From Rubritalea marina DSM 17716 (GTDB lineage Bacteria; Verrucomicrobiota; Verrucomicrobiia; Verrucomicrobiales; Akkermansiaceae): a DNA stretch of 64,000 nucleotides. Positions 13,591 through 51,036 of this stretch are shown here, one piece after another. The notes beneath the pieces are model-generated. The model saw nothing but the letters and a program-made list of their open reading frames with translations, made no database searches and was not told the DNA's origin. The translations under genes were made by a program, and so were the position numbers. The stretch spans positions 124,001-188,000 of the forward strand of contig NZ_KB899250.1 in the NCBI RefSeq assembly GCF_000378105.1, in the 5' to 3' direction. Numbering within the stretch: position 1 is the stretch's first letter; each line of letters begins with the position of its first letter.

Positions 13591-13831
13591 CTCGTCGGCT
13601 CTCGCCTCCGAACATCAGCCCCCTGCAACGCGAGTCAACCCGCCGAAAACACCCAGAGCGCAGATCCTACTGAGCAGCAATCACTAAGATATCTCACCTC
13701 AATCCCGCAACTGTCGCTTCTAAAAAAACTCTAATTTCATCGTAATTTTTTATTGCATCTCTCTCGTTGCTAGCGTAATCATTCGCCCGCAAGCAGCGCC
13801 GAAAGGCTCTAAATGCACACTATCCAACGAT
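13591..13831. other. Intergenic region before tRNA-Gln
   Basis: About 240 bases without a supportable gene. The tRNA promoter must lie here; I did not identify clear -35/-10 boxes. No repeat or further hairpin stands out. Confidence 0.5.
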
Positions 13832-13905
13832 AGGCCTATGGTGTAATGGTAACACTCCGGATTTTGATTCCGTCATTCTAGGTTCGAGCCCTAGTAGGCC
13901 TACCA
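13832..13905 (+). tRNA. tRNA-Gln (anticodon TTG), CCA encoded
   Basis: The acceptor stem AGGCCTA/TAGGCCT is perfect. The D arm is GTGT...ACAC, the anticodon loop is TTTTGAT (TTG), and the T arm is CTAGG-TTCGAGC-CCTAG. Discriminator A and an encoded CCA follow. One C/T mismatch sits at the top of the anticodon stem. A strong terminator follows 8 bases later. Confidence 0.95.
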
Positions 13906-13912
13906 CTTCTCA

Positions 13913-13951
13913 AAACAAGCCGCTGAGTCACACTCAGCGGCTTGTTTGTTT
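13913..13951 (+). terminator. Rho-independent terminator after tRNA-Gln
   Basis: A perfect 16-bp stem (AAACAAGCCGCTGAGT, 13913-13928, with its complement 13932-13947) has a 3-base loop and runs into GTTTT. Confidence 0.92.
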
Positions 13952-13997
13952 TACTCCTTAATTTTTTCTCTCGCAGGTTTACTACCGCACATCTAAC

Positions 13998-14705
13998 ATG
14001 TTTGGTATGAAACGATTCACAATCACAGCATTGAGTCTAGCGATTATGGGTAGCAACTTGAATGCTCGCACATGGACCAGCTCCGATGGTTCAAGAACCT
14101 TTGAAGGGCAATTCAAAAGCTACCATGAAGAATCTGGGATGGTGACGGTCACCAAAGGCTACAAGAAACTTTCATTCCCCCTCACTAAGCTCTCTTTAGA
14201 GGACCGTCAGTGGATACGCCTCGAATCTCAAAAGGAAACAACCGCTGAAGATTCCGCCTCGGTCAAAGAACAACTCGCCGAGCAAACTATAGGGAAAAAC
14301 CTCAAACCCGGAATCCTCGAAAAGCTGGATGGCAACCGCTTCGTACGCGCAGAACTCGACAAAGCTCCAGAATACTACCTGCTTTATTTCTCAGCCAGTT
14401 GGTGACCGCCCTGCCGCACTGGAGCGCCACAGTTAGTGGCCAAATACAACGAAATCATCGCCAATCATCCCAGCGTCGAAATGATCCATGTTTCGCTAGA
14501 TCGAGATGAGAAAGCAGCCCTTCAATGGGCTCAAAAAGAAAACTTCCCCTGGTTTCACGTGCTGCCCGATAAAGTCAAACGATCCAAGCTAGGCAAATAC
14601 CACACCTCAGGCCGCGTGCCATTTTACGTCCTACTCGACAAAGATGGCACCGTCCAAGCGAAAGGCTCCCCGACAGTCTTCAATACTGCCAAGTCGCTGA
14701 AATAA
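13998..14705 (+). CDS. Secreted SHD1-thioredoxin-like protein with in-frame UGA: probable selenoprotein
   Basis: Reading through TGA at 14403-14405 gives one 235-residue protein. Residues 1-23 look like a signal peptide (alternative start ATG 14007). Residues about 24-77 (RTWTSSDGSRTFEG through LTKLSLEDRQWI) resemble the SHD1 domain common in Planctomycetes and Verrucomicrobia. The rest is a TlpA/thioredoxin-like fold: YLLYFSASW-U-PPCRTGAPQL, then EMIHVSLDRDE and the cis-Pro region SGRVPFYVLLDKDG. The UGA is codon 136, exactly the first cysteine of W-C-x-x-C. The frame on both sides is intact and homologous, which argues against random decay. A hairpin at 14426-14440 suits a SECIS. SelD is encoded in the same window. 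A nonsense mutation remains the alternative. The role is probably extracytoplasmic thiol/selenol redox. Confidence 0.8.
14426..14440 (+). promoter_or_regulatory. Candidate bacterial SECIS hairpin
   Basis: GCCAC-AGTTA-GTGGC forms a 5-bp stem with a 5-base loop. The loop begins 25 bases after the UGA and has G as its second base. As I recall the bacterial SECIS model, this fits its loop size, stem length, loop guanosine and spacing limits. The stem is short, so folding energy should be checked. Confidence 0.5.
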
Positions 14706-14800
14706 TACCGCACTCACCTTCCACATCTCCAAACGCAAAGATCACCACACTCTAACTAAACGCAATATAGTTGCATTTACCTGAAACTTCATGCTACCAG

Positions 14801-15400
14801 ATGTGGCAAATGAAAGCGGAAGGAATCGATGAAAAGCGTTTGAGGATACTCCTAAAGGACTGCGCAACAGGCTTCTATCAACAAATGTACTTCTTGGGGA
14901 AGGATGTGATGCACCCGTCTGGCAATCAACTTGAGGCATTTGGCTTTAAAAAAACACCTTCTAAAGGACTCAAAGGCACCAGTTGCTATACCTTAGAACG
15001 CGATGGCCTCAGTATCGAACTCCATGGTTCCTGCGCTGCCGCCTACACGCATGAAGGTAGCGTGGTCTTTCTGCGCAAACGCAACAGCTTTTACAGCTGG
15101 CTTCCAGAAGAGCCAGTGGTACCCGGCAAATGGACTCAGGATGACATCCGCCGCCAGCCCCCGTGCAAGATGCTAGAATCGCTATGCCCCCTGTTGGAAT
15201 GGTGGATTGAATATGAGGCCTGGATTGCGGATCGACTGCCAGCGAGTTACCGCAAGTTCTGCCAGTCTGAGTGGCGCAAGCTCAAAAGCATGCCCGTATG
15301 GCTCACACCAGAAACAGCCCCACGGTGGGTGGAAGGCCTAATCACCAACAAAGACCAGCAGGCACGACCGAGACACTTCGAACTAGCAAACGCATTGTAA
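14801..15400 (+). CDS. Unidentified protein
   Basis: About 199 residues from ATG 14801 (MWQMKAEGIDEKR); a TTG at 14771 would add ten. I do not recognise the family. It has no signal peptide and no membrane helix. It is rich in Trp, Tyr and Cys, with segments such as LEAFGFKKTPSKGLKGTSCY, HEGSVVFLRKRNSFYSWLP and LLEWWIEYEAWI. Length, start context and the lack of overlap support a real gene. It follows the selenoprotein candidate by 95 bases and could be co-transcribed, since I see no terminator between them. Confidence 0.6.
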   Translation: MWQMKAEGIDEKRLRILLKDCATGFYQQMYFLGKDVMHPSGNQLEAFGFKKTPSKGLKGTSCYTLERDGLSIELHGSCAAAYTHEGSVVFLRKRNSFYSWLPEEPVVPGKWTQDDIRRQPPCKMLESLCPLLEWWIEYEAWIADRLPASYRKFCQSEWRKLKSMPVWLTPETAPRWVEGLITNKDQQARPRHFELANAL

Positions 15401-49983: not shown

Positions 49984-51036
49984 ATGAGCAAAGAATCCAT
50001 CACTCGACTAACCAGCTTGGCATCCTGCGGCGGATGAGCTTCGAAGCTCGACCCTGCGTCACTCGCGCAAGTTTTGCGCGATCTACCTAGTCCATCTGAC
50101 CCCAAACTCCTCGTCGGCTCAGCCAGTGCCGATGATGCTGGCGTGTACCAACTCAGCGACGACATTGCGCTGGTGCAGACACTTGATTTCTTCACCCCAA
50201 TCACTGACGACCCGTTCACCTTCGGCCAAATTGCTGCGGCCAATGCCCTTTCCGACGTCTACGCCATGGGGGGGCGCCCTATCACAGCAATGGCAATCGC
50301 AGGCATGCCTACCGAGCACCTCAGCAATGCAGAAATTGCGGAAATTTTCCGAGGAGGCGCTGAAATGGTGCAGCAAGCAAACTGCACCCTGGTAGGAGGG
50401 CATACCATTAAAAACCCCGAACCAATCTACGGCCTCTCAGTCACAGGCACAGTGCACCCGCAGAAATATCGCGCCAACGCACACGCTCAATTAGGAGACA
50501 TCCTCATCCTAACGAAGCCATTGGGCACAGGGGTGATCACCACCGCCCACAAGAAAGGCGCCTGCTCCGATCAACTAATGCAGGCCGCCATCGATAATAT
50601 GATCTCTCTCAACACCGCTGGAGCAGATCTTGCAGAAAAAAACCTCATCAACGCCTGCACCGACATCACCGGCTTTGGATTCCTCGGCCACCTCATCGAG
50701 GTCGCAGAAGCCTCCGAACTGTGCGCCAACATCCACATGGCTGACATTCCCGCCATATCCCCCGACCTGATCAACTTGATTGATGCTAGTTACATCCCCG
50801 GAGGGTCCAAGGAAAACCTCAAGAGCATGCGCGACAAAGTCAACTTCTCCAGCGAAATCTCCGAATCAGAAAAGCTCCTACTCGCCGATGCTCAAACATC
50901 GGGCGGCCTCCTGATTTCTGTCGCTCCAGAAAACCTAGACGCCGTCTATGCTGTACTCGACGATCACGACACACTCTGCGCGACCCGCGTGGGTATCATG
51001 CAGAAGTCAGGAGACTTTGCCGTAACTTGTAGCTAA
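49984..51036 (+). CDS. selD: Selenide, water dikinase SelD, itself with UGA-encoded selenocysteine
   Basis: From ATG 49984 the product has 350 residues with Sec at codon 18 (TGA 50035-50037): LASCGG-U-ASKLDPASLAQVL. This matches the SelD active-site segment (G-G-C/U-A-S-K-L), where cysteine or selenocysteine acts. Gene callers would start at TTG 50074 and lose the first 30 residues. Later motifs include LVQTLDFFTPITDDPFTFG, ANALSDVYAMGGRP and the metal/ATP segment LVGGHTIKNPEP. A hairpin at 50063-50081 fits a SECIS. It makes selenophosphate for tRNA-Sec charging, so its presence implies selA, selB and selC elsewhere. The call is firm. Confidence 0.95.
50063..50081 (+). promoter_or_regulatory. 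Candidate bacterial SECIS hairpin of selD
   Basis: TCGCGCAA (50063-50070) pairs perfectly with TTGCGCGA (50074-50081) around loop GTT. The loop starts 33 bases after the UGA and its first base is G, as the bacterial SECIS model expects. A second palindrome (GAGCTTCGAAGCTC, 50036-50049) overlaps the UGA itself. Confidence 0.65.

What the first reader, a model, noticed from the sequence alone, without database searches (positions are those of the whole stretch)
13998..14705. Probable new selenoprotein: secreted SHD1-thioredoxin with UGA at the redox position
Seen: two reading frames in one phase join exactly across TGA 14403-14405. Read through, they give a complete thioredoxin-like fold with W-U-P-P-C-R. 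UGA falls precisely on the first redox cysteine. Known: Sec replaces this Cys in many redox selenoproteins, and bacteria that carry selD use Sec. Inference: this is one 235-residue selenoprotein with an N-terminal SHD1-like domain, a combination I do not know as a described selenoprotein. It would be missed or called two hypothetical genes.
Basis: partly seen in the sequence, partly recalled or inferred. Interest (0 to 1): 0.88.

Follow-up and report, generated by a model that had tools for sequence, protein, structure and literature searches.

The report
Exported selenocysteine thioredoxin in Verrucomicrobiales bacteria
A gene that looks broken by a stop codon most likely encodes one exported redox protein with selenium at its active site, and the same UGA codon sits at the same place in about a hundred related genes of Verrucomicrobiales bacteria.

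Summary
Confirmed. TGA 14403-14405 lies in frame exactly on the first redox cysteine (WUPPC) of an SHD1-like plus thioredoxin protein. The genome has tRNA-Sec, selA, selB and selD. About a hundred distinct homologues (109 distinct 45-nt contexts) carry TGA at this codon, with no second TGA in the matched domain; 42 of 42 named loci do, three from cultured strains. Other homologues have TGC/TGT. In 260 family genomes UGA genes and selA co-occur: 58 both, 6 UGA only, 12 selA only, 184 neither. A SECIS-like hairpin with an AGUU loop follows the UGA: AGTT in 103 of 109 UGA contexts, 0 of 28 Cys homologues. Gln145 is CAG in 96 of 96 (background 46%), Leu146 is TTR in 93 of 93 (background 14%): the RNA is under selection beyond the protein. 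Against: RNAalifold predicts no structure, and the single-sequence fold is not unusually stable. Most likely it is an exported tryparedoxin/ResA-like thiol-disulfide reductase working through a selenolate; export, substrate and reductant are inferred. UxxC thioredoxin-fold selenoproteins are known; the SHD1-fused Verrucomicrobiales family was not found in the searches made. There is no protein-level proof.

The parts
13998..14705 (+). Selenoprotein gene (235 codons with UGA=Sec, stop TAA); conserved start probably ATG 14007
14007..14066 (+). Probable export signal (residues 4-23)
   Evidence: By sequence and homologues: 54 of 59 SHD1-type relatives have a strongly hydrophobic 9-mer near the N-terminus and 52 of 59 a small-x-small site before R-x-W; no signal-peptide predictor was run
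14067..14207 (+). SHD1-like SH3-type domain (about residues 24-70)
   Evidence: Profile of 12 relatives matches PDB 2hbp (Sla1) at E=0.0053; PF03983 in 8 of 28 relatives at E<=1; predicted strands 24-61
14277..14702 (+). Thioredoxin-fold domain (about residues 94-235), active site W-U-P-P-C
   Evidence: Pfam, tryparedoxin by profile, predicted structure and fold matches
14403..14405 (+). In-frame UGA read as selenocysteine at the first redox position (codon 136 of the frame as given)
14426..14440 (+). SECIS-like hairpin: stem GCCAC/GUGGC, loop AGUUA (14431-14435), loop starts 25 nt after the UGA
   Evidence: fits the loop and spacing rules quoted
49984..51036 (+). selD, itself a selenoprotein gene (CGGUASK), same pathway
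   Evidence: (381.2 bits, 1 TGA inside); the ATG start is inferred
50035..50037 (+). In-frame UGA of selD
50063..50081 (+). Hairpin of selD with the same AGUU-type loop (UCGCGCA AGUUU UGCGCGA), loop 32 nt after the UGA

Best explanation
The locus is one gene for an exported selenoprotein. During translation SelB with Sec-tRNA-Sec (from SelA, SelD and the tRNA-Sec gene) binds the AGUU-loop hairpin that begins about 20 nt after UGA 14403-14405 and selenocysteine is inserted there; this rests on comparative evidence. The protein is then exported through an N-terminal signal (inferred); the mature form has an SH3-like SHD1-type domain, a helix and a tryparedoxin/ResA-like thioredoxin domain with a U-P-P-C site. 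Inferred mechanism: the selenolate of U136 attacks a disulfide or oxidised target outside the cytoplasm, C139 resolves the selenenylsulfide, and a membrane DsbD/CcdA-type carrier (two DsbD_TM proteins are encoded) re-reduces it; SHD1 would place it on a partner. The confidence given is for the selenoprotein reading; thiol-disulfide reduction outside the cytoplasm is the likeliest function (about 0.65); substrate and partner are unknown.
For: Machinery in the own genome: tRNA-Sec 54.3 bits over the Rfam cut-off and called SeC by ARAGORN, selB 290.9 bits, selA 494.8 bits, selD 381.2 bits, all over cut-off. Conservation: 94 distinct UGA contexts from the first loci, TGA at the aligned codon with no second TGA in the match (these loci were fetched because one search flagged a TGA, so only the position, not the fraction, is evidence). 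42 of 42 named loci are UGA (their search pattern favours this clade and many are the same contigs as the unnamed ones). Co-occurrence with selA in 260 family genomes: 58 both, 6 UGA only, 12 selA only, 184 neither; outside the family 22 of 22 fetched genomes with an aligned UGA have selA. Hairpin: 87 gapless sequences, 90.4% of cells paired against 80.7% in shuffles, 36 double-change cells against 5.9; 19 changes between Watson-Crick pair types needed on the protein tree in 91 rows. Codons: CAG 96 of 96, TTR 93 of 93, AGTT in 103 of 109 UGA contexts against 0 of 28 Cys homologues. Sister pair: Cys gene L197 and Sec gene L198 both encode A-P-Q-L-V, spelled CCG CAA CTC against CCA CAG TTG. selD in these genomes has a like hairpin, AGUU in 11 and AGUC in 5 of 18 located contexts. 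Function: thioredoxin/tryparedoxin folds at Z 14.8 to 12.9; N-terminal signals and lipobox-like patterns; two DsbD_TM proteins.
Against: RNAalifold on the 87 sequences predicted no structure. The fold around the UGA is no more stable than shuffles (z -0.05), and the best fold of the 47 nt after the window's UGA is a different one. The number of pairs with a double change (5, shuffles 3.3) was reached by 44 of 500 shuffles. The window copy forms 5 of the 6 consensus pairs. Only 1 of 28 Cys homologues has Gln at 145 (spelled CAA), so their lack of AGTT partly reflects other residues. Six UGA genomes show no selA, though five of them have selD; 12 selA genomes have no listed UGA gene. Sequences are related, so counts are not independent, and the tree is poorly resolved. 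Neighbouring genes are not conserved. No peptide, selenium-label or mutant data.
Confidence: 0.95

Rival explanations
1. Pseudogene or sequencing/assembly error: a Cys codon became a stop by mutation or miscall.
For: Raw reads were not seen; each half of the gene would be called as a fragment.
Against: The same UGA in 109 distinct homologous contexts, also in records of three cultured strains; the part after the UGA is conserved at 40-58% identity to the window copy in 22 relatives; synonymous sites after the UGA are constrained.
Confidence: 0.02
2. UGA is read another way: near-cognate read-through inserting Trp or Cys, or UGA reassigned in this organism.
For: Read-through would also give the full-length protein.
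Against: TGA ends 13 of 55 non-overlapping long ORFs in the window, so it is a normal stop; UGA genes go with selA; the AGTT hairpin goes with UGA.
Confidence: 0.02
3. A selenoprotein with another activity: peroxidase-like, linked to methionine sulfoxide, or a disulfide isomerase/oxidase rather than a reductase.
For: Glutathione peroxidases also align to the fold (2p31 Z 11.3, 7l8l Z 10.8); Sec serves peroxide reduction in other families (established knowledge).
Against: U-x-x-C with a resolving Cys, and tryparedoxin, ResA, StoA and DsbE among the closest relatives, point to thiol-disulfide reduction; the motif is not U-x-x-T.
Confidence: 0.3
4. Both products matter: selenium supply switches between a truncated exported SHD1 protein (stop at UGA) and the full selenoprotein.
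For: The first 135 codons hold a signal and the SHD1-like domain; termination competes with Sec insertion at UGA (established knowledge).
Against: About 65 residues between SHD1 and the UGA would be left over; 36 UGA relatives without a full-length match (no SHD1 seen) have the same UGA, where truncation would leave little.
Confidence: 0.05

Closest known systems
Thiol-disulfide isomerase-like selenoprotein, UxxC (4 Sargasso Sea sequences, PMC1088965; listed with pfam13905 Thioredoxin_8 in PMC9312934 and with cd02966 in PMC13188914)
   Same: Thioredoxin_8-type domain and UxxC; may include members of this clade
Trx-like 1 selenoproteins (COG0526, UxxC, 321 Global Ocean Sampling sequences, PMC2398784)
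   Same: UxxC thioredoxin-fold selenoproteins
   Different: A broad class by domain; no Verrucomicrob in the main text; relation not tested
NCBIfam selenoprotein models NF053656 (TUGYCR motif), NF045694 (TsoB), NF040769 (SelL-related)
   Same: Thioredoxin-fold selenoprotein models that weakly match 2, 4 and 1 of 32 relatives (E 0.0013, 3.3e-4, 0.0056 at best)
   Different: Weak, few members, and none listed for the window protein
Tryparedoxin-type thioredoxins
   Same: Best PDB matches by profile and fold; WCPPC site (recalled)
   Different: Parasite (eukaryotic) Cys proteins; this one is bacterial, probably exported, with Sec for the first Cys
ResA, StoA, DsbE/CcmG and TlpA thiol-disulfide oxidoreductases
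   Same: Weak NCBIfam matches and fold matches
   Different: Window protein far below cut-offs (31.5 of 170 bits for ResA); Sec at the active site
SHD1 domain (PF03983; yeast Sla1, 2hbp)
   Same: N-terminal domain aligns over about 50 residues
   Different: Weak; a designed SH3-like barrel scores better (0.0015); the binding role known for Sla1 (recalled) is not shown here

Membership tests
Bacterial selenoprotein | In-frame UGA aligned with a catalytic Cys of homologues | tested here: met
Bacterial selenoprotein | Sec machinery (tRNA-Sec, selA, selB, selD) in the genome | tested here: met
Bacterial selenoprotein | bSECIS: 3-9 nt loop, 4-16 bp stem, G in the first two loop positions, 16-37 nt from UGA (rules from PMC13188914 section 5) | tested here: met
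   Loop AGUUA, 5 bp, 25 nt in the window copy; conserved with covariation
Bacterial selenoprotein | bSECIS minimum free energy of -7.5 kcal/mol or lower (same source) | tested here: inconclusive
   -13.7 kcal/mol for 61 nt but no better than shuffles; the 47 nt after the UGA fold best otherwise; RNAalifold gives none
Bacterial selenoprotein | Selenium present in the protein | not testable with these tools
   Needs 75Se labelling or mass spectrometry
Thioredoxin_8 UxxC selenoproteins ('thiol-disulfide isomerase-like') | Thioredoxin_8 domain with UxxC | tested here: met
   PF13905 at 5.3e-16; U-P-P-C
Thioredoxin_8 UxxC selenoproteins ('thiol-disulfide isomerase-like') | Sequence relation to the published members | not tested
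SHD1 (PF03983) | Pfam gathering score | tested here: not met
   Not listed for the window protein at E up to 10; relatives at best 3.1e-4
SHD1 (PF03983) | SH3-like fold like Sla1 SHD1 | tested here: inconclusive
   2hbp E=0.0053 by profile; strands predicted; the domain was not searched alone by structure
ResA / DsbE (NCBIfam) | Curated cut-off | tested here: not met
   31.5 of 170 and 29.7 of 123.15 bits for the window protein

The most novel reading that the evidence does not exclude
Verrucomicrobiales run a selenium-based redox system outside the cytoplasm: a multigene family of exported Sec-thioredoxins (SHD1-fused soluble forms and lipoprotein-like forms, up to three in tandem), possibly a main reason why these bacteria keep the Sec machinery, with repeated swaps between Sec and Cys in which the RNA signal decays even at synonymous sites.
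Probability: 0.4. Interest if true: 0.68.

Novelty: new variant of a known kind. Interest (0 to 1): 0.55.

Why it matters
It adds a large, well-supported selenoprotein subfamily in a group whose name does not occur in the main text of seven selenium/selenoprotein papers that I searched for it. The window protein is over no NCBIfam cut-off among its listed matches, so annotation would probably show two fragments (inference). Close Sec/Cys relatives, with the RNA signal present or gone, make the gain and loss of selenium use testable, and cultured carriers exist.

Tried and rejected
Rfam on 13600-15100 gave only the tRNA over its cut-off. RNAalifold on A1 gave no structure. Gene neighbourhood (42 named loci, the window and the own paralogue; clusters present in at least 4 loci among the first 40): apart from the family's own frames, clusters were shared only by subsets of loci, so no partner could be named. 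Model R1 over 387 phylum genomes matched 8 at E<=0.01: 4 with UGA genes (G000, G187, G189, G190), 1 at a Cys homologue (G058), 3 weak ones (G441, G456, G563) whose stretch does not begin with TGA and which lack selA. R1 on the own genome gave two strong matches and 11 with E above 1; other kinds of selenoprotein in this genome were not surveyed. G397 was listed with '1 TGA' but its aligned codon is TGC, so it is not counted as UGA. The 94 of 106 contexts are not an unbiased fraction: loci flagged with TGA were fetched, and 10 stretches with Cys genes as a sample.

Dropped rows: L042 and contexts with N before the counts; 3 of 94 Sec rows. In one search, 4 of 23 selD loci were not located and L227 was mislocated; of the other 18, 11 have AGTT with a 7-bp stem, 5 AGTC, 2 neither. 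Start codons were chosen by a rule of mine. The structure search lists the thioredoxin part only (model residues 94-235). Rows were thinned by a text-similarity ratio, not a proper identity. Of two structure jobs one was used.

Full report
Observation. TGA 14403-14405 joins two reading frames of one phase; read as Sec, 13998-14705 gives 235 residues with W-U-P-P-C. Of 13 non-overlapping ORFs of at least 100 aa ending in TGA in the window, it has the longest open continuation, 100 codons against 44 for the next; TGA is otherwise an ordinary stop (13 of 55 such ORFs).

Domains. Pfam finds Thioredoxin_8 at 5.3e-16 across the UGA. SHD1 is weak: not listed for the window protein, in 8 of 28 relatives at E<=1, best 3.1e-4; a profile of 12 relatives matches the Sla1 SHD1 structure 2hbp at 0.0053, second to a designed SH3-like barrel at 0.0015. 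AlphaFold2 on 32 sequences gives mean pLDDT 89.6, with strands 24-61, helix 67-95 and a thioredoxin domain whose Sec precedes helix 137-154. The nearest solved folds are a thioredoxin and tryparedoxins (4fyu Z 14.8, 9fov Z 13.9). Export is inferred from sequence: a hydrophobic 9-mer in 54 of 59 SHD1-type relatives, a small-x-small site before R-x-W in 52 of 59, and a loose lipobox pattern in 22 of 36 short relatives, but also in 10 of 59 SHD1-type ones.

Machinery. The own genome (3.01 Mb, 95.5% complete) has tRNA-Sec, selB, selA and, in this window, selD with its own in-frame UGA in CGGUASK.

Conservation. P0001 matched 173 of 260 family genomes at E<=1e-10. From the loci fetched, which were mostly those flagged with a TGA plus a sample of Cys genes, 106 distinct contexts cover codon 136: 94 TGA, 11 Cys, and one GAT in a divergent match. 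No TGA-containing match had a second in-frame TGA in the matched stretch. Three records are named strains: Roseibacillus ishigakijimensis KCTC 12986, R. persicicus KCTC 12988, Persicirhabdus sediminis KCTC 22039. At order level (386 genomes) UGA forms also occur in four other families, beside close Cys forms.

Link with selenium use. selA was found in 70 of 260 family genomes. With 64 listed UGA genomes the table is 58 both, 6 UGA only, 12 selA only, 184 neither. Five of the six UGA-only genomes have selD (G183, G184, G208, G240, G243), so gaps in assembly are likely. Of 50 genomes chosen have selA; the 22 with an aligned UGA all do. G369, with a close Cys gene, has none; G305, G355, G275 and G296 have selA with a Cys gene.

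SECIS. The 87 sequences align without gaps after the UGA. Columns 23-28 and 34-39 form a 6-bp stem around A-G-U-U-N: 90.4% of cells paired against 80.7% in shuffles, 36 double-change cells against 5.9, slid versions at most 56.5% paired; but the number of pairs with a double change, 5, was reached in 44 of 500 shuffles. On the protein tree the six pairs need 7, 5, 2, 0, 4 and 1 changes between Watson-Crick types, 19 in all, over 91 rows; the tree is poorly resolved. In 109 distinct UGA contexts Gln145 is CAG in 96 of 96 (background in the same genes 46%), Leu146 is TTA/TTG in 93 of 93 (background 13.9%), and AGTT is present in 103; it is in 0 of 28 Cys homologues, of which only one has Gln there, spelled CAA. 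That one is L197 (G355): with its closest Sec relative L198 (SH-aLRT 100) it shares A-P-Q-L-V but not the codons. selD of these genomes has a like hairpin: of 18 located contexts 11 have AGUU, 5 AGUC, 2 neither. Of 2832 TGA triplets in the window on both strands 5 are followed by such a hairpin. Against: RNAalifold gave nothing, and the local fold is not more stable than shuffles.

Evolution. A quick tree of 119 thioredoxin domains needs 6 changes between Sec and Cys, at least 4 forced by starred branches; it has few columns and many open forks. Tandem UGA copies occur, three in G205. The own genome has a second UGA thioredoxin without SHD1 at C1:38968-39405.

Mechanism. Supported by comparison: UGA at the redox position, RNA-level constraint, machinery, co-occurrence. 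Inferred: export, selenolate attack on oxidised substrates, C139 as resolving residue, recharging by one of two DsbD_TM proteins. Neighbouring genes give no partner.

Literature. I read section 5 and part 1 of 3 of section 7 of PMC13188914 plus found passages, and passages only of PMC9312934, PMC1088965, PMC9402790, PMC12013277, PMC5029168, PMC2398784 and PMC4807772. They list UxxC thioredoxin-fold selenoproteins, one under Thioredoxin_8. SHD1 does not occur in the main text of PMC13188914 or PMC12013277, nor Verrucomicrob in the first seven papers. PMC4807772 describes selenoproteins of Planctomycetes; its tables are supplements and were not seen. Library searches for selenoprotein with Verrucomicrobia, Verrucomicrobiota, SLA1 homology domain or Roseibacillus, and selenocysteine with Akkermansiaceae, showed no paper on such a protein among the titles and abstract starts listed (30 of 68 and 20 of 25 were listed); one search listed 12 of 117. 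Supplements and most subscription papers were out of reach. For the window protein all NCBIfam matches listed are below their cut-offs; for 32 relatives only E-values were seen, with weak matches to three selenoprotein models. I file it as a new variant of UxxC thioredoxin-like selenoproteins; overlap with the four Sargasso sequences was not tested.

Noticed in passing
window 49984-51036 (+): selD is itself a selenoprotein gene (UGA 50035-50037) with an AGUU-loop hairpin like that of the thioredoxin gene.
   Followed up: yes
L098 4969-5490 (-), own contig C1: Second UGA thioredoxin in the own genome, short form without SHD1, UPPC.
   Followed up: partly
L037/L096 (G205:C58): Three UGA thioredoxin genes in tandem, each with TGA at the redox position.
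   Followed up: partly
L042 (G183:C76): UGA gene whose resolving Cys position is altered (UPSA), in a 96% complete genome where selA was not found but a UGA-containing selD is present; decay or assembly error.
   Followed up: no
L209 (G047), L210 (G011): Two Cys homologues from the genus coded g2 with an in-frame TAG after the active site; broken genes or errors.
   Followed up: no
L218-L224 (genera g6, g8): selD with no in-frame stop in seven genomes without a selA match; selenium use other than Sec is a guess.
   Followed up: no
window 13832-13902 (+) and about 13921-13950: A tRNA gene (TTG anticodon by eye) and, by eye, a terminator-like hairpin lie just upstream, so the selenoprotein gene probably has its own promoter.
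   Followed up: no
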